IMG/VR virus record: IMGVR_UViG_3300043395_004258
Span: 1-24,675 of that record
Strand: one strand, 5' to 3'
Source of the DNA: a virus
Length of the DNA: 24,675 nucleotides
A model generated the notes under the pieces. That model had not been told where the DNA came from and did no database searches. It saw nothing but the letters and a program-made list of their open reading frames with translations. Shown here piece by piece: positions 4,399 to 22,204 of the stretch (its first letter is position 1; each line of letters starts with the position of its first letter). The position numbers and the translations under genes were made by a program.

Positions 4399-4406
4399 TA
4401 TTTATA
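4399..4406 (-). promoter_or_regulatory. Consensus T4 late promoter (TATAAATA)
   Basis: The minus strand reads TATAAATA exactly. It lies immediately after the terminator at 4406-4428 and 25 bases before the ATG at 4374. It is the clearest late promoter of the structural block. Confidence 0.85.
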
Positions 4407-4428
4407 AAAAAACCTCCCGAAGGAGGTT
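4406..4428 (-). terminator. Rho-independent terminator with UUCG loop
   Basis: A 7-bp GC-rich stem (arms 4411-4417 and 4422-4428) is closed by a TTCG tetraloop on the minus strand and followed by a run of T. It follows the stop of the small gene at 4433 and would end the replication-gene transcript before the late block. Confidence 0.9.
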
Positions 4429-4432
4429 TAAC

Positions 4433-4609
4433 TCATGTAGCTGCTTTTTTGAGTTCAATATTTAATTGTTTTATTACTTCACGAAGTCTTACAATTCTTT
4501 CTGGAGGAAATTCTTCACTATACCCGATAGTAGAGGAATCAAGAACTTGAAAGACTTCAAGTGCTGATGTCGTATTTAATTTGAGGCTTATTTGTTTTCC
4601 CTTACTCAC
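4433..4609 (-). CDS. Small protein of unknown function, GTG start coupled to mazG
   Basis: The reading frame is open from ATG 4642, but GTG 4609 is the better start. It overlaps the mazG stop as GTGA and has GGAGG 7 bases upstream, whereas ATG 4642 would lie well inside mazG. From GTG the product is 58 residues: a beta-like start (KGKQISLKLNTTSALEVFQV), a short link, then an amphipathic helix (ERIVRLREVIKQLNIELKKA). I recognise no family. It is translationally coupled to mazG and is the last gene before the terminator at 4406-4428. Confidence 0.65.
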   Translation of the reverse strand: MSKGKQISLKLNTTSALEVFQVLDSSTIGYSEEFPPERIVRLREVIKQLNIELKKAAT

Positions 4610-6401: not shown

Positions 6402-7596
6402 AACTAAATTCCTTGTGTGCGATTTCGTCCAACTGTTGCATTACTTCTTCGGTAAAGTATTTTTCTGGATTTTTTAAAATTTCTTTTGCATAAAGTTTCT
6501 TTCCTTCAATCTCATAGCGTCCTGCTACATTCTTCCAGAGTCCACCAAGTTCTCCAAGTTCAAGCAGACCATAATATCTATCAAGACCACGCTCATCATA
6601 ATACAAACGAACCTCAACGTCTTTATTTTCTTTACTCAAACGCGATTTAGCAGTCTTAGCCTTGATAATATTGCCGACCACTTCTGTTCCATCCTTTTCT
6701 TTCTTTTTGCTGAGATAAATAATCGTAGACGCTGCGTACTTGAGTCCGCTACCTCCACCCATTTCCTTAGTTGGTACGTAAGCTCCGATAACATCATAGG
6801 TGTGATTAGTAACGATCATTGGAATATTTGCCTGACCAAGTTTCAAGGTAAGCATACGGAATGCACCTTTAATCAGTTGTGATTTGGTCATATCACGAAC
6901 TTCTTTATCATTTAATGCATCATTAATCTCTTTACTTGTTGAAAGCATACCCAGAGAGTCTAGCACAAACATACAAGGATTGCGTTCCCCTTCAGGTTTT
7001 TTCATATAAAGGTCAACTGCCTTAAGTGCCTTTCCACGGAACTCTTCAACAGTCACTACATTTACTACAACAATACGAGTAGTGTCTAATCCACGCGACT
7101 CTAGAAGAGATTTAGTGATAGCAGCTTCAGTATCAAAATAGAGACAATAACCATCGGAATTATTATCCAGAAAATTCTTGACAACGGCGAGGCTGAAGAA
7201 AGTATTATGATGATAAATTCCAGATTTAGAATTTGAAATATACCAGTGAGGAGCATCTATAGAAATATCATATACACTTTCAATACCAACTGGAGTTTTT
7301 TCAACTACAACTTTTTTACCATAAGTAGAAGTAATTTCTCCGGCATCAACTGCTTTGATTTCTAATCCAGTATGATAATCTTGAAAGATATGATTTATAG
7401 AACATTCGAATTTATCTCCATCACTAAAATCTAAACTTATAACTTCATTATTGTGTTTGGTTACCACCTGATTAATTCTAGTTTTTCCTGTTGGTGTTCT
7501 AACATATATTTCGTCAGTGACTTCATATGGAACTTCGTGCTCACCTTTACCATAAAGTTTATAAAGTTGTTCGTATGTAAGTTCAAGTTCAACCAT
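6388..7596 (-). CDS. uvsX: UvsX recombinase C-terminal part preceded by C-intein
   Basis: 402 residues from ATG 7596, which has GAGGAA 7 bases upstream. The frame is also open from TTG 7602. Residues 1-131 are the C-intein: a block-B-like region ending in SINHIF, then blocks F and [14 protein letters not shown] and SGIYHHN, with penultimate His and terminal Asn. The first extein residue is Thr132. The rest is the RecA/UvsX core: YFDTEAA, Walker-B-like [15 protein letters not shown] and the loop region [12 protein letters not shown]. Joined to the 64-residue N-extein, the spliced protein would be about 335 residues with a restored GESSTGKT P-loop. UvsX coats single-stranded DNA and drives strand exchange. 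The start overlaps the endonuclease stop by 8 bases. Confidence 0.93.
7204..7596 (-). other. C-intein of split UvsX intein (about 131 residues)
   Basis: This segment encodes everything of the intein after block A: a block-B-like [13 protein letters not shown], block F ([13 protein letters not shown]) and block G (GIYHHN), immediately before extein Thr (7201-7203). No endonuclease domain is embedded. The junction falls exactly where the UvsX P-loop resumes. Confidence 0.9.
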
Positions 7597-8554
7597 TTTC
7601 AAATTCCTCTAAAATTTTTAGCGTTTTTTTTAAATTTTCATCATTATACTCAAAACATTCTGTAGTTTTAATTACAGTTGGAGCATATGAATTTTTAAAG
7701 TAGAGATGAAATTCATTTTCAAGTTTAACGGCATCAATTGATTTTATCCTTTTAAACAAAAATAAATTATAATTTAATGAAATACTCCATCTTTTTGAGA
7801 TGTTATTGTGTTTTGTCAATCCATATTTTACAATTCTATTACCATTATCTTCCAATACTATCATATAAAAGTTCAAGAAGTCAATGTTGGCAATTGTTTC
7901 TTCAGTATAATACCCAACATGAGAATTTAATTTTCTTTTAGTATTAATCTCCTCCAAATTTTTACCACTTTTATAGAAAGATTTAAACCATTTATCATTT
8001 TTCTCTTTCCACTTTTTCAATCCAATGTCTTCCCCATATTTTTTAACATAAAAATCAATTCCTCTTGATTGAGATTTGGATACAATTAATTTAGAATCTT
8101 CTTCAGTATAACCCTGTTTCATCCAATATTCAGGTCGTCTTATTGAACCTTCAATGTAAGTATTTTGGTTTCTATTTAATCTAATATTTTTTGAAGATTT
8201 TCCATTTTCTATTTTTTTATCCTTGAACTCTAAAAACTTTTTAGTTCCCAATTCTTCTCCATATTTTTCAATCCAATAATTTAGTGTTTGCAATTTCAAT
8301 TGGGAGGATTTCATATTTTGTTTTTGACTTTCAGTTCTTTTTGAACCTTTGTTAGATTTACCATTATTTTGAATTTCTTTAATTTTAATTAAAGATTCAT
8401 TTTCACTTAATCCAAGTTCAATCCAATACTCAATGCATCTTGGACTGCATTTTCGTCGTTGCAGTTTTGATTTTTCAAGTGCTTCATCTTCAGTAAACCC
8501 AAGAAGTATCCAGTATAAAGGTCTTCTTGGGTCATTTCTACCTTCTCCTCTCAT
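7589..8554 (-). CDS. Free-standing GIY-YIG-like homing endonuclease inside the split uvsX intein
   Basis: 321 residues. The C-terminal part (about 225-315) fits a GIY-YIG/T5orf172-type nuclease: FYMI (229-232) and KYGLT (243-247) stand for GIY and YIG, followed by Arg255 in SKRW and Glu in KLENEFH (279-281). The N-terminal 190 residues hold two kinds of repeat in the order A-A-B-A-B. Type A is YW-x3-G-[FLY]-[ST]-E-x-[ED] at about 11-32, 39-60 and 139-160. Type B is KYGE[ED][LI]G-x-KK at about 91-113 and 166-188. Such repeats are presumably DNA-binding. The gene lies exactly between the intein halves and has its own TATAAATA promoter. No Shine-Dalgarno precedes the ATG. The GIY-YIG call rests on pattern reading; the position makes a homing role very likely. 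Confidence 0.82.
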
Positions 8555-8598
8555 AGCAATTTAAAACTTTATATTATTTATACAATTGCAGGAGAAAG
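8541..8598 (-). promoter_or_regulatory. Hairpin hiding the endonuclease start codon, late promoter in its loop
   Basis: Arms 8584-8589 and 8556-8561 (GCAATT/AATTGC on the minus strand) pair over 6 bp. Flanking segments 8590-8596 and 8543-8549 (TTCTCCT/AGGAGAA) pair over 7 bp more, extendable by two pairs including a wobble. The 6-base bulge 8550-8555 contains the ATG at 8552-8554. The loop contains the TATAAATA promoter, so RNA started there lacks the upstream arm. Confidence 0.7.
8575..8582 (-). promoter_or_regulatory. Consensus late promoter (TATAAATA) of the homing endonuclease
   Basis: The minus strand reads TATAAATA exactly, 20 bases upstream of the endonuclease ATG at 8554, within the 57-base gap after the UvsX N-terminal stop. 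Confidence 0.85.
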
Positions 8599-8611
8599 AA
8601 CTACTAAAATA

Positions 8612-8887
8612 TTACAAATTACATAGTTTATTTTTTATCCTGTTGGCAGTTTCTTCATCACAATAAATTGTAATTTTTTCCGTTCCTCTAGCACATTTTC
8701 CAGTAGAAGACTCTCCAGCAATAGCAGTAATCTTATTCCCAGATACACCGCCAAATATGCTACCTGAAACCAATGCGTTAAAAATGTACGAACCTGTGTC
8801 AACATATCTTTCAGTTTCATCAATTTCTGAAGCAAGTTGTGTGTATTCTCCACCAATTTCTTTTACAATATCTTTAAGAAAGTCCAT
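8612..8887 (-). CDS. uvsX: UvsX recombinase N-terminal part followed by N-intein
   Basis: 91 residues. Residues 1-64 are the UvsX N-terminal region ending in the P-loop AGESSTGK. Residue 65 is Cys, followed by 26 residues of intein block A (CARGTEKITIYCDEE) and then a TAA stop. The N-intein is thus 27 residues, far shorter than the roughly 90-100 of ordinary split inteins. Trans-splicing with the C-intein at 7204-7596 would join GK to Thr and rebuild GESSTGKT. AGAGGT precedes the ATG. A promoter (TTGATT, 17 bases, extended TATACT) lies just upstream at 8909-8937. The partial protein alone would be inactive, since Walker A is cut in two. Confidence 0.92.
   Translation of the reverse strand: MDFLKDIVKEIGGEYTQLASEIDETERYVDTGSYIFNALVSGSIFGGVSGNKITAIAGESSTGKCARGTEKITIYCDEETANRIKNKLCNL
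8615..8695 (-). other. N-intein of split UvsX intein (27 residues)
   Basis: It begins with the nucleophile Cys (8693-8695) directly after the Lys of the P-loop and stops after KNKLCNL. It contains block A only. Block B is on the C-intein, so the break lies between blocks A and B. Confidence 0.88.
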
Positions 8888-8908
8888 AAATTACCTCTAA
8901 GTAAATCC

Positions 8909-8937
8909 AGTATAGCATCAAATAAAAAATGAATCAA
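8909..8937 (-). promoter_or_regulatory. Sigma70-like promoter of uvsX, extended -10
   Basis: Minus strand: -35 TTGATT (8932-8937), 17-base spacer, -10 TATACT (8909-8914) preceded by TGC. It overlaps the end of gp43 and lies 22 bases before the uvsX ATG. Confidence 0.65.
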
Positions 8938-11419
8938 GGGTTGTTTTTTTCTCTGTATTCCAACCAATAATATCTAAAATTGCTTTAAGTGGTTTAATGA
9001 AAGTTTTTTCGAATTGCATATCATAATCAACATATTTTTGTAAGTTAAACTCTGATGGTAATTTTTGTATAAAAGAAATGACATTTTCTTGAATTGGATT
9101 GGGTAATTTTAAATAGCAATATTTAATTTTTTCTCCATTTTTAATAATGGAATATTTTTTATCCAATTTTTTATCTTTAATGTAATAATTATAAAGTATT
9201 GACCCTCTTACGTGGATTGGTGTGGATTTAGCATACATTGTACTATTAGACTTGAATTTTGTAATTTCATTTACTGATTTAGGAAAAGAAACCTCTTCTG
9301 GGGTCAATTCAAAAAATTCTTTTCTAGTAATATCAATAAATTTTATTACTTCATCTTCTGTTGATGTCATAATTAACTTGATTGCCTTTTTAATTCTATC
9401 TCGACAAAAAGCTGGCGTAGAAGATCTGATTGCTTCAATTCCAGTCATTGAAAGTTCAGGCTCAGAATACCGAATGCCCTCATTGTCCCAAACATTTGCA
9501 ATATATCTTTTTTTAGAAATAAATACAGCACGATCTGTAATTTTTTCTCGTTTCATGTGCAATCGATGTGCGTATGCATTCAAGTAATCCGCCAATTCTT
9601 TATAAGAATTATCTACATATTCTTGAATCTTAGTAGAAAAAATTTTATCTAAAAAATCTATTATTTCTAATTTTGTTGGTGTTTTATTTTGATAGATCTT
9701 ATCTACTAATGGTTTCATATTCAAAAATGCAGAGTCGGTGTCACAATAAACAACATAATCAATATTTTCAGTATTCAATATCTTATTAAAATACAGATTA
9801 AACTTCATTTCAATCCAACGAATTGCTAATTGTCCAGTATAAGTAACTGCTTCGGCATTCCTAAGATCATAAAATCTAAAATATGGATTTCCTGTTGCGC
9901 CATAACAAGAATTCAAACACACCTTAATAGATTGTTCTTTTACACTATACATTGAAATTAGTTTCTTAATATTAGAATCATGAGTTTTTTCATAATCTTT
10001 CTTAAGATCTTTCATTTTGTCTTTGTATAACTTTCTTTTCTGAAACATCTTATCGAGAAGTTCGGGGAGAAATCCCATTCTATCTTTTTTATACATAGAC
10101 CCATTTGGGCAAACCGAATATCTAAAATCATCAGGAATCTTTACAGATTTTTTTAATATAGAATCAATAGATATGTTTGGGAACCTATCCTGAACTAAAG
10201 TATCTGGACTAATATTGAGTCCCATCATAATATGCGGATATAGAGAAGTCAAGTCCATACTAACAACATAGTCGTATGACCCTGGAATTGGCTCTTTAAC
10301 AAAAGCACCAACAAACTTATCAGATTTTTCTTTTGCTGCCTCTTTAAGTGGAATTACAACATGTTTACGACGAAGATAGTTATAAATGATGGTATCCCAC
10401 ATTCTTACTTGATAAAAAACATCTTCAAAATTTGTTTTAGAGTCAAATGCAAGCATGATTGCCAATTCAATCATATGAAGTTTATCTTCTAATTTATTAA
10501 CAAGTTCGGTATCTATTACATTATATTCTACAAATGTGTCCCAATCACTATCATAAAAGTCTTTAAATGTTTCGTATTCACTATGATCTAGTTTATTTTG
10601 TCCTAGTTCATTGAATGTAATAGTATCTAATCTATAATTTTCTGGTTTCTTAAATGAATATTTTTTGTAGAGATCAAAATAATCAATAATAGCTACACCA
10701 AAAATATCATATACAGTTTGCTGTTCTCCTATCCTAACTTCAACTTGTTTATCCGAAATCCAATTATATGGAGATAATTTTCTTGTTTCTTTTTCTCCAA
10801 TTATCCTATACATTCTACCAATAATATATGGAAAATCATAGTATAAACAATTCCATCCAGTAACTATTTCAGGAGTATTATTTCTCCAGAATTCCAAGAA
10901 AGAAAAAATCAAATTAGTTTCGTTTTTACAATAAAAATATTTGTGATTGTTTAATTTTTTATTAAATGGTCTAGTTCCCCAAGTATATATTTTTTTAGAT
11001 ATATAATCCTGAATTGTAATTAATAGAATTTCCTCGTCACACGTTTTTGGATCTGGGAACCCATTCTCTGAAGAAACTTCGATGTCTATCGCTACAATTG
11101 ACATCTTAGTTATATCGTATTCTATATACTCTTCTGGATAGTTATCAGAAATGTATTGATATATTGGCGTTTCATTTCCATATATTTCAAACCCTTCTAC
11201 TTCTTTATATTTGTCAATAAACTGCTTTGACTCTTTAATTGTTCCGGGTTGAATAGATTTAACGTATTTGCCATCTAGTGTTTTATATTCAGTTTTTTTG
11301 TCTGACATGACATAAAAAGTTGGTCTATAATCAACTATGTCTGTGAATCTTTCTCCATTTTCATATCCTCGAACATAAATTTTATTTCCGAGCTGTTTTA
11401 CACTAGTATACCAACGCAT
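8918..11419 (-). CDS. gp43: DNA polymerase gp43 (family B)
   Basis: 833 residues, slightly shorter than T4 gp43 (898). This is the replicative polymerase with 3'-5' proofreading. Exonuclease motifs are DIEVS (112-116), GWNCLYYDFPYI (188-199) and YNVIDTE (299-305). Polymerase motif A is MDLTSLYPHIM (388-398), motif B is the KVCLNSCYGATGNP region (499-512) and motif C is YCDTDS (558-563). The C-terminus TTLDSFFI is a sliding-clamp binding peptide of PIP-box type, expected to dock on gp45. No intein or frameshift interrupts it. The ATG shares its A with the stop of the upstream 98-residue gene (TAATG), indicating translational coupling. The promoter at 11739-11767 serves both. Confidence 0.95.
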   Translation of the reverse strand: MRWYTSVKQLGNKIYVRGYENGERFTDIVDYRPTFYVMSDKKTEYKTLDGKYVKSIQPGTIKESKQFIDKYKEVEGFEIYGNETPIYQYISDNYPEEYIEYDITKMSIVAIDIEVSSENGFPDPKTCDEEILLITIQDYISKKIYTWGTRPFNKKLNNHKYFYCKNETNLIFSFLEFWRNNTPEIVTGWNCLYYDFPYIIGRMYRIIGEKETRKLSPYNWISDKQVEVRIGEQQTVYDIFGVAIIDYFDLYKKYSFKKPENYRLDTITFNELGQNKLDHSEYETFKDFYDSDWDTFVEYNVIDTELVNKLEDKLHMIELAIMLAFDSKTNFEDVFYQVRMWDTIIYNYLRRKHVVIPLKEAAKEKSDKFVGAFVKEPIPGSYDYVVSMDLTSLYPHIMMGLNISPDTLVQDRFPNISIDSILKKSVKIPDDFRYSVCPNGSMYKKDRMGFLPELLDKMFQKRKLYKDKMKDLKKDYEKTHDSNIKKLISMYSVKEQSIKVCLNSCYGATGNPYFRFYDLRNAEAVTYTGQLAIRWIEMKFNLYFNKILNTENIDYVVYCDTDSAFLNMKPLVDKIYQNKTPTKLEIIDFLDKIFSTKIQEYVDNSYKELADYLNAYAHRLHMKREKITDRAVFISKKRYIANVWDNEGIRYSEPELSMTGIEAIRSSTPAFCRDRIKKAIKLIMTSTEDEVIKFIDITRKEFFELTPEEVSFPKSVNEITKFKSNSTMYAKSTPIHVRGSILYNYYIKDKKLDKKYSIIKNGEKIKYCYLKLPNPIQENVISFIQKLPSEFNLQKYVDYDMQFEKTFIKPLKAILDIIGWNTEKKTTLDSFFI

Positions 11420-21706: not shown

Positions 21707-22204
21707 TTAAGTTCTAAGCTTAGAATAAACTGCATCTTTAATACTATTGTAATCTGAATAATTTCCACCATCAATAGTATTGTCATCTACAAAAACTTCA
21801 TCAAATCCAGATCTTTCTAAAATTTTTCCTTTAATTTCCAACTGACGTTTTTCTTTTTGTATTCTTCTAAGAAAAGCATAATGAATTACCTGAGTAAAAT
21901 ATGCAAAAGGATTTGATGACTTTTCTGGATCAAAATTTAAAATATATTGTACACAATTTTCTATCCCATCGCAAATCATATCATCTTTAAACATATAATT
22001 TACAAAATTTGGTTTAAAGGACAGATGAGTTGCAATTTTTAAAAAACATTCTCCTATGTAATTTGGAATTGTTGGCTGTGGTTCTCCATTAGTTTTTGCT
22101 TTGCTGACTATACGACGATATTCAACTAAAGCAGCCAAAAACTCTTTATTATTAACATAGTGAACACTACGTTTTCTTTTTGTCATGACAGCTGTTGTGA
22201 TCAT
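21707..22204 (-). CDS. gp55: Late-transcription sigma factor gp55
   Basis: 165 residues (T4: 185). The region from NYIGECFLKIATHLSFKPNF to NPFAYFTQVIHYAFLRRIQKEKRQ carries sigma region 2-like features, including the FDPEKSSNPFAYFTQ segment typical of gp55. Gp55 replaces host sigma and directs RNA polymerase to TATAAATA promoters, six of which are listed in this window. GTAGGT precedes ATG 22204; ATG 22186 (MTKRKRS) is an alternative. The gene heads the gp55-gp47-gp46 unit, with a TTGCCA/TATAAT promoter upstream, so the late sigma is itself made from a host-type promoter. Confidence 0.92.
   Translation of the reverse strand: MITTAVMTKRKRSVHYVNNKEFLAALVEYRRIVSKAKTNGEPQPTIPNYIGECFLKIATHLSFKPNFVNYMFKDDMICDGIENCVQYILNFDPEKSSNPFAYFTQVIHYAFLRRIQKEKRQLEIKGKILERSGFDEVFVDDNTIDGGNYSDYNSIKDAVYSKLRT

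What the first reader, a model, noticed from the sequence alone, without database searches (positions are those of the whole stretch)
8541..8598. Hairpin around the endonuclease start codon with the late promoter in its loop (I-TevI-like control)
Two paired segments (6 bp and 7 bp, extendable) flank a bulge holding the ATG. The TATAAATA promoter lies in the loop between the arms. RNA reading through from the uvsX promoter would contain both arms and hide the start; RNA started at the late promoter lacks the upstream arm and would be translated. T4 I-TevI is regulated by the same logic, so this may be an independent case in a split-intein endonuclease.
Basis: partly seen in the sequence, partly recalled or inferred. 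Interest (0 to 1): 0.85.

Follow-up and report, generated by a model that had tools for sequence, protein, structure and literature searches.

The report
Hidden start of a phage endonuclease
A cyanobacterial virus carries a selfish DNA-cutting gene inside a split repair gene, and its start signal appears to be locked in an RNA hairpin until a late-infection promoter, placed in the hairpin's loop, makes a shorter message without the lock; similar locks occur on several other such genes.

Summary
On the minus strand a stem of 9 + 6 bp (8598-8584 with 8561-8541) flanks a 6-nt bulge holding the endonuclease ATG, and TATAAATA (8582-8575) lies in its loop. The gene sits between the halves of a split intein in the UvsX P-loop of a T4-like cyanophage that encodes gp55.
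The promoter is well supported. Seven of nine intact relatives at this site carry [N][AC]TAAATA 27-36 nt before the start, and in isolate DSL-LC03 this motif marks gene starts.
The exact hairpin is weaker. Its pairs are 80% kept in the four closest sequences, with no compensatory change, and an upstream-only shuffle gives p = 0.17.
The logic is strongly supported. Unrelated hairpins wrap the late promoter before other endonucleases: L037 (same site, 14-bp stem hiding the Shine-Dalgarno), L057 (split gp41), L053 (another UvsX split intein) and an HNH gene in DSL-LC03's tRNA cluster. Predicted cost of opening the start, read-through minus late RNA, is median 5.3 kcal/mol for 26 endonucleases against 0.9 for 74 other late promoters (p = 6e-7); the window scores 8.3.
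This is I-TevI/MobE-type control, recurrent in split-intein endonucleases. No RNA was measured.

The parts
8909..8937 (-). sigma-70-like promoter upstream of uvsX (TTGATT, 17 nt, TATACT): candidate source of the read-through RNA
   Evidence: consensus match 9 of 12 with TG before the second hexamer; as many such matches expected by chance in this stretch
8612..8887 (-). UvsX N-terminal half fused to a 27-residue N-intein (IN from about 8695)
   Evidence: phrog_97 UvsX E 9e-17; junction GESSTGK|CARG in the P-loop
8590..8598 (-). 5' arm, outer stem CUUUCUCCU
   Evidence: fold; sequence kept in L004 and L007, TCTCCT in L005
8584..8589 (-). 5' arm, inner stem GCAAUU
   Evidence: fold
8575..8582 (-). 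late promoter TATAAATA in the loop; predicted RNA start about 8568 (8566-8570)
   Evidence: motif at -27 to -36 in 7 of 9 intact relatives; marks gene starts in DSL-LC03
8556..8561 (-). 3' arm, inner stem AAUUGC
   Evidence: fold
8552..8554 (-). endonuclease AUG in the 6-nt bulge UAUGAG (8555-8550)
   Evidence: fold; start aligned with relatives
8541..8549 (-). 3' arm, outer stem AGGAGAAGG, inside the endonuclease coding region
   Evidence: fold
7589..8554 (-). homing endonuclease, 321 aa: N-terminal YW-repeat modules and a C-terminal GIY-YIG-like domain
   Evidence: MUG113 PF13455 E 0.0068, below the Pfam cut-off, found in 4 of 9 members; weak fold matches to Slx1 (Z 4.7), UPF0213 and UvrC GIY-YIG, T5orf172/GIY-YIG viral models
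7204..7596 (-). C-intein (IC), which has its own Shine-Dalgarno AGAGGA at about 7610-7604
   Evidence: ends HHN|T before UvsX-C; 83% identical in L001
6388..7596 (-). IC plus UvsX C-terminal part
   Evidence: RecA PF00154 E 2.7e-11; phrog_97 E 2e-76
21707..22204 (-). gp55-like late sigma factor, which would read TATAAATA
   Evidence: phrog_234 late sigma transcription factor E 9e-68

Best explanation
The leader of this split-intein homing endonuclease is a timing switch. Early RNA made from upstream of uvsX runs through the N-intein, the endonuclease and the C-intein. In it the segment 8598-8584 pairs with 8561-8541 across the start codon and keeps ribosomes off, so UvsX halves and intein halves are made and spliced without the nuclease. 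Late in infection gp55-directed polymerase starts at about 8568 from the TATAAATA in the loop; this short RNA lacks the upstream arm, so the start is open and the endonuclease is made. Shown here: the anatomy, the late promoter by comparison, the predicted opening of the start, and recurrence of the arrangement before other phage endonucleases. Inferred: that the RNAs exist, that the hairpin forms, and that it blocks translation in this phage.
For: Fold and geometry. gp55 in the window. Motif [N][AC]TAAATA in 7 of 9 intact relatives against 1-11% of shuffled leaders; in DSL-LC03 TATAAATA lies 12-80 nt before a CDS in 10 of 12 cases and NCTAAATA in 17 of 25, against 2 of 43 and 4 of 57 for NG/NTTAAATA. 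Opening cost falls by 8.3 kcal/mol from read-through to late RNA, exceeded by 1 of 74 controls; endonucleases as a class 5.3 against 0.9. Independent, non-homologous hairpins with the same geometry: L037 z -7.25, L057 and L053, DSL-LC03 HNH z -6. The broken copy L012 has lost the TATAAATA and the 5' arm. Known precedent: I-TevI, I-TevII, I-TevIII, SegB, Aeh1 MobE (PMC2988022).
Against: The window's own arms show no compensatory changes and lose pairs in the nearest relatives. L004 and L007 have little predicted difference. Upstream-only shuffling gives p 0.17 for the window. No Shine-Dalgarno is hidden because none is present. L035 has neither gap nor motif and its start overlaps the IN stop.
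Confidence: 0.6

Rival explanations
1. Only the late promoter matters. It gives the endonuclease a late RNA; the hairpin in this phage is a by-product of a pyrimidine-rich leader facing a purine-rich coding start, and early repression comes simply from the lack of a Shine-Dalgarno.
For: Promoter conserved while the hairpin is not; upstream shuffles reach the observed opening difference in 17% of cases; no Shine-Dalgarno in 8 of 9 intact relatives.
Against: Only 1 of 74 other late promoters shows as large a change; five of the seven family members other than the window also pair their flanks more than most shuffles (L005, L001, L013, L015, L037: p 0.002-0.06), though L004 and L007 do not.
Confidence: 0.3
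2. The conserved 5' arm is a DNA operator that resembles the homing site, so that the endonuclease represses its own late promoter as I-TevI does; the RNA pairing is secondary.
For: In L004 the leader matches its own homing site on the opposite strand at 18 of 24 (p 0.003) and that is the best hit in the contig; in the window 19 of 29, tied for best in 24.7 kb; window leader against L004 homing site 22 of 29. Explains why the 5' arm is kept when the 3' arm is not.
Against: Not significant for the window on its own (p 0.16; p 0.36) and absent in L005, L001, L013, L015, L037.
Confidence: 0.15
3. The hairpin is a terminator or processing site limiting read-through into the endonuclease and C-intein.
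For: Lies just after the IN stop codon.
Against: No U-run follows; the terminator scan finds none in 7500-9100. Terminating here would also cut off the C-intein, which UvsX needs.
Confidence: 0.03

Closest known systems
T4 I-TevI in the td intron (with I-TevII and I-TevIII)
   Same: Late promoter next to a hairpin that hides the translation start only on early and middle RNA; late RNA lacks the upstream arm (PMC2988022, PMC3014915).
   Different: There the host is a group I intron and a consensus Shine-Dalgarno is hidden; here the host is a split intein, no Shine-Dalgarno is present in the window copy, and the arms flank the start. The nuclease is only GIY-YIG-like.
Aeromonas phage Aeh1 mobE in split nrdA
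   Same: Free-standing endonuclease inside a split host gene, with late promoter and RBS-hiding hairpin (PMC2988022).
   Different: MobE is HNH; no split intein is described for it in the review read here.
Split-intein 'fractured genes' with Vsr-like endonucleases (Dassa and others 2009, from memory; paper not held)
   Same: Endonuclease ORF between the IN and IC halves of a phage replication gene; same YW-repeat modules in Vsr-type relatives.
   Different: Window nuclease has a GIY-YIG-like, not Vsr-like, C-terminus; regulation by hairpin and late promoter was not found described in the library.
T4 segB in the tRNA region
   Same: Parallels the DSL-LC03 HNH gene: endonuclease in a tRNA cluster with late promoter and hairpin.
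   Different: HNH, not GIY-YIG.

Membership tests
Hairpin plus late-promoter control of phage homing endonucleases (I-TevI/MobE type) | late promoter immediately upstream, its RNA lacking the upstream arm | tested here: met
   TATAAATA 8582-8575, 28 nt before ATG; motif validated in DSL-LC03 and relatives
Hairpin plus late-promoter control of phage homing endonucleases (I-TevI/MobE type) | stable structure over the start region in read-through RNA, relieved in late RNA | tested here: met
   predicted opening cost 10.4 versus 2.1 kcal/mol; prediction only
Hairpin plus late-promoter control of phage homing endonucleases (I-TevI/MobE type) | a Shine-Dalgarno is sequestered | tested here: not met
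   no SD-like tetramer at -20..-4 in the window copy; met in L037 (AGGAG) and visible in L057. The window is therefore described as working like this type, not as a strict member
Hairpin plus late-promoter control of phage homing endonucleases (I-TevI/MobE type) | structure conserved by compensatory change | tested here: not met
   0 compensatory pairs in 4 sequences
Hairpin plus late-promoter control of phage homing endonucleases (I-TevI/MobE type) | late RNA and early repression measured | not testable with these tools
   needs infected cells
GIY-YIG homing endonuclease | GIY-YIG domain | tested here: inconclusive
   PF13455 E 0.0068 below cut-off; fold Z 4.7 to Slx1, 2.7 to UvrC GIY-YIG; invariant FY, KYG, RW, E, TTECF-like positions
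Split intein in UvsX | IN and IC on separate ORFs flanking a conserved extein site | tested here: met
   GESSTGK|C ... HHN|TFF; relatives with the same split and with an unsplit mini-intein at the same site

The most novel reading that the evidence does not exclude
Hairpin-gated late translation is a general rule for endonucleases lodged between split-intein halves in T4-like phages. The hairpins have arisen many times from unrelated sequence around the late promoter, because the host protein must be trans-spliced early while the nuclease must wait; in some lineages the leader also carries a copy of the homing site as an operator.
Probability: 0.5. Interest if true: 0.7.

Novelty: new variant of a known kind. 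Interest (0 to 1): 0.55.

Why it matters
Split-intein genes are widely used as tools, but I found no account of how the endonuclease between their halves is kept silent while the host protein is made. If the hairpin and late promoter are the answer, the I-TevI solution has been reached repeatedly, by GIY-YIG-like, Vsr-like and HNH nucleases, in split-intein and tRNA settings and in cyanophages. That makes an old idea, that selfish nucleases must fit the host's timing, testable by comparison and by simple reporters.

Tried and rejected
A terminator: none found in 7500-9100. An alternative start: the AUG at 8536-8534 is well spaced from AGGAG but out of frame, and the corresponding ATG is absent in L007. 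A shared leader module in other genes: a scan with the leader pattern found only this family plus chance hits. Relatives in bacterial and archaeal genomes: none. Named phages: one short, weak hit only. Homing-site-like operator as a general feature: not significant in most loci. Compensatory change in the window hairpin: none. The fold search of the AlphaFold model (pLDDT 75) gave only weak GIY-YIG-type matches, so the nuclease class stays likely, not proven.

Full report
What is there. The window is a 24.7-kb virus fragment with T4-like replication genes: gp41, UvsX, gp43, RegA, gp62/44/45, gp46/47, gp55 and UvsW (functions by PHROGs, by Pfam, and by gene order against DSL-LC03). UvsX is split in its P-loop by an intein whose halves lie on separate ORFs: UvsX-N plus IN at 8887-8612, and IC plus UvsX-C from 7596. 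Between them is a 321-aa homing endonuclease at 8554-7589. Its C-terminus looks GIY-YIG-like, but the evidence is weak.

The observation. The hairpin is real as drawn, slightly longer than stated: 9 + 6 bp, with the AUG in a 6-nt bulge and TATAAATA in the loop. It is not overwhelming by itself. Shuffling the whole 60-nt element gives 1 of 200 as good, but stricter tests give p 0.09 and 0.17, because the leader is AT/pyrimidine-rich and the coding start is purine-rich.

The promoter. I tested the motif on the isolate with the most similar gene order found, Synechococcus phage DSL-LC03, whose uvsX is intact. TATAAATA lies 12-80 nt before an annotated CDS in 10 of 12 cases, NCTAAATA in 17 of 25 and VATAAATA in 11 of 29, against 2 of 43 and 4 of 57 for NGTAAATA and NTTAAATA; about 4.5% of positions qualify. 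Published cyanophage late motif: NATAAATA (PMC2984593). With the window, ten loci at this UvsX site have a readable endonuclease leader. Nine of them, the window included, have an intact endonuclease ORF, and seven of these nine have the motif at -27 to -36. The exceptions are L005, which has TATATATA (one mismatch), and L035, whose start overlaps the IN stop. The expected rate in shuffled leaders is 1-11%, P about 9e-9, or 3e-6 when the close trio counts once. The tenth, L012, whose endonuclease is broken by frameshifts, has lost TATAAATA and the 5' arm; a motif at -53 there lies inside the IN coding region.

The hairpin in relatives. L004 and L007 keep the 5' arm and promoter but break 3 of 15 pairs; over four sequences 80% of cells pair and none is compensatory. 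L005 pairs UCUCCU with AGGAGA around its start. L001 and L013 have different stems that also enclose the motif. L037, the most distant, has a perfect 14-bp stem with CTAAATA at its loop side and the Shine-Dalgarno AGGAG at the 3' foot: -29.1 kcal/mol, z -7.25, 0 of 200 shuffles.

The logic beyond this site. In an unselected ranking of 37 late promoters of DSL-LC03 by pairing across the promoter, the first is the HNH endonuclease: a 12-bp stem reaching into the ATG with TATAAATA in the loop, z about -6. Across all early loci the top five of 62 promoter-gene pairs are endonucleases. Among them are Vsr-like nucleases in other split-intein genes: L057 in gp41, and L053 with its near-copy L052 in UvsX at another intein. 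A scan for Vsr-like cores gave 79 more loci, most of them between split-intein halves. A promoter-independent start-hairpin score has z below -4 in 8% of 74 endonucleases and in 0 of 256 other ORFs from the same loci; against 116 DSL-LC03 genes the shift in that score is not significant (p 0.07). The measure closest to the hypothesis, opening cost of -12..+12 in read-through minus late RNA, has median 5.3 kcal/mol for 26 endonucleases and 0.94 for 74 controls, p 6e-7; at 5 kcal/mol or more, 15 of 26 against 3 of 74; the window has 8.3. Upstream-only shuffles give p 0.002-0.006 for L037, L057, L053, the HNH gene and L129, and a combined p of 3e-4 for the UvsX-site family (0.007 without L037). 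The endonucleases are related in groups, so these p-values are optimistic. The best-studied cases were picked out by the same kind of score, so their individual p-values are not independent of the search.

How it works. Best reading: early read-through RNA folds the start away; the late RNA cannot. The C-intein has its own Shine-Dalgarno, so UvsX can be trans-spliced early without the nuclease. Shown: sequence, fold predictions and comparative recurrence. Inferred: RNA species and repression. I put 0.6 on this for the window, 0.9 on the late promoter.

Comparison. This is the I-TevI/MobE scheme (PMC2988022). The window differs in having no Shine-Dalgarno to hide and in its split-intein host, so I call it a variant that works like that scheme. 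I-TevI also binds a homing-site-like operator at its late promoter. The window's conserved 5' arm resembles the homing site in L004 (18 of 24, p 0.003) but not significantly in the window itself, so this remains a lead.

Noticed in passing
L059 40808-40846 (OR003938.1, DSL-LC03): HNH endonuclease in a tRNA cluster; the DNA just upstream reads like the 5' half of a tRNA broken near the anticodon loop, followed by a 12-bp hairpin with TATAAATA in its loop.
   Followed up: partly
DSL-LC03 (L059-L061): CTAAATA behaves as a late-promoter variant much as TATAAATA does (17 of 25 next to gene starts); no account of it in cyanophages surfaced in the one search made.
   Followed up: partly
L010, L011, L016, L017: Unsplit mini-inteins without endonuclease at the same UvsX site; L006 has a mostly deleted endonuclease: stages of gain or loss.
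   Followed up: no
L054 leader, about 690-717: Leader of a UvsW split-intein endonuclease carries a near copy of its own homing site (19 of 24) just after AATAAATA, as expected of an I-TevI-like operator.
   Followed up: partly
window 4399-4460 (-): Second TATAAATA of the window, directly after a terminator-like hairpin and 25 nt upstream of the ORF 4374-3745.
   Followed up: no
L050 2215-2275; L021 2600-2665: 9-bp perfect arms enclose the start of two further split-intein gp41 endonucleases, without a standard late motif.
   Followed up: no
L022 minus strand, promoter 1613: The one non-endonuclease control above the window: an 87-aa ORF behind TATAAATA with a strong hairpin (18.7 kcal/mol).
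   Followed up: no
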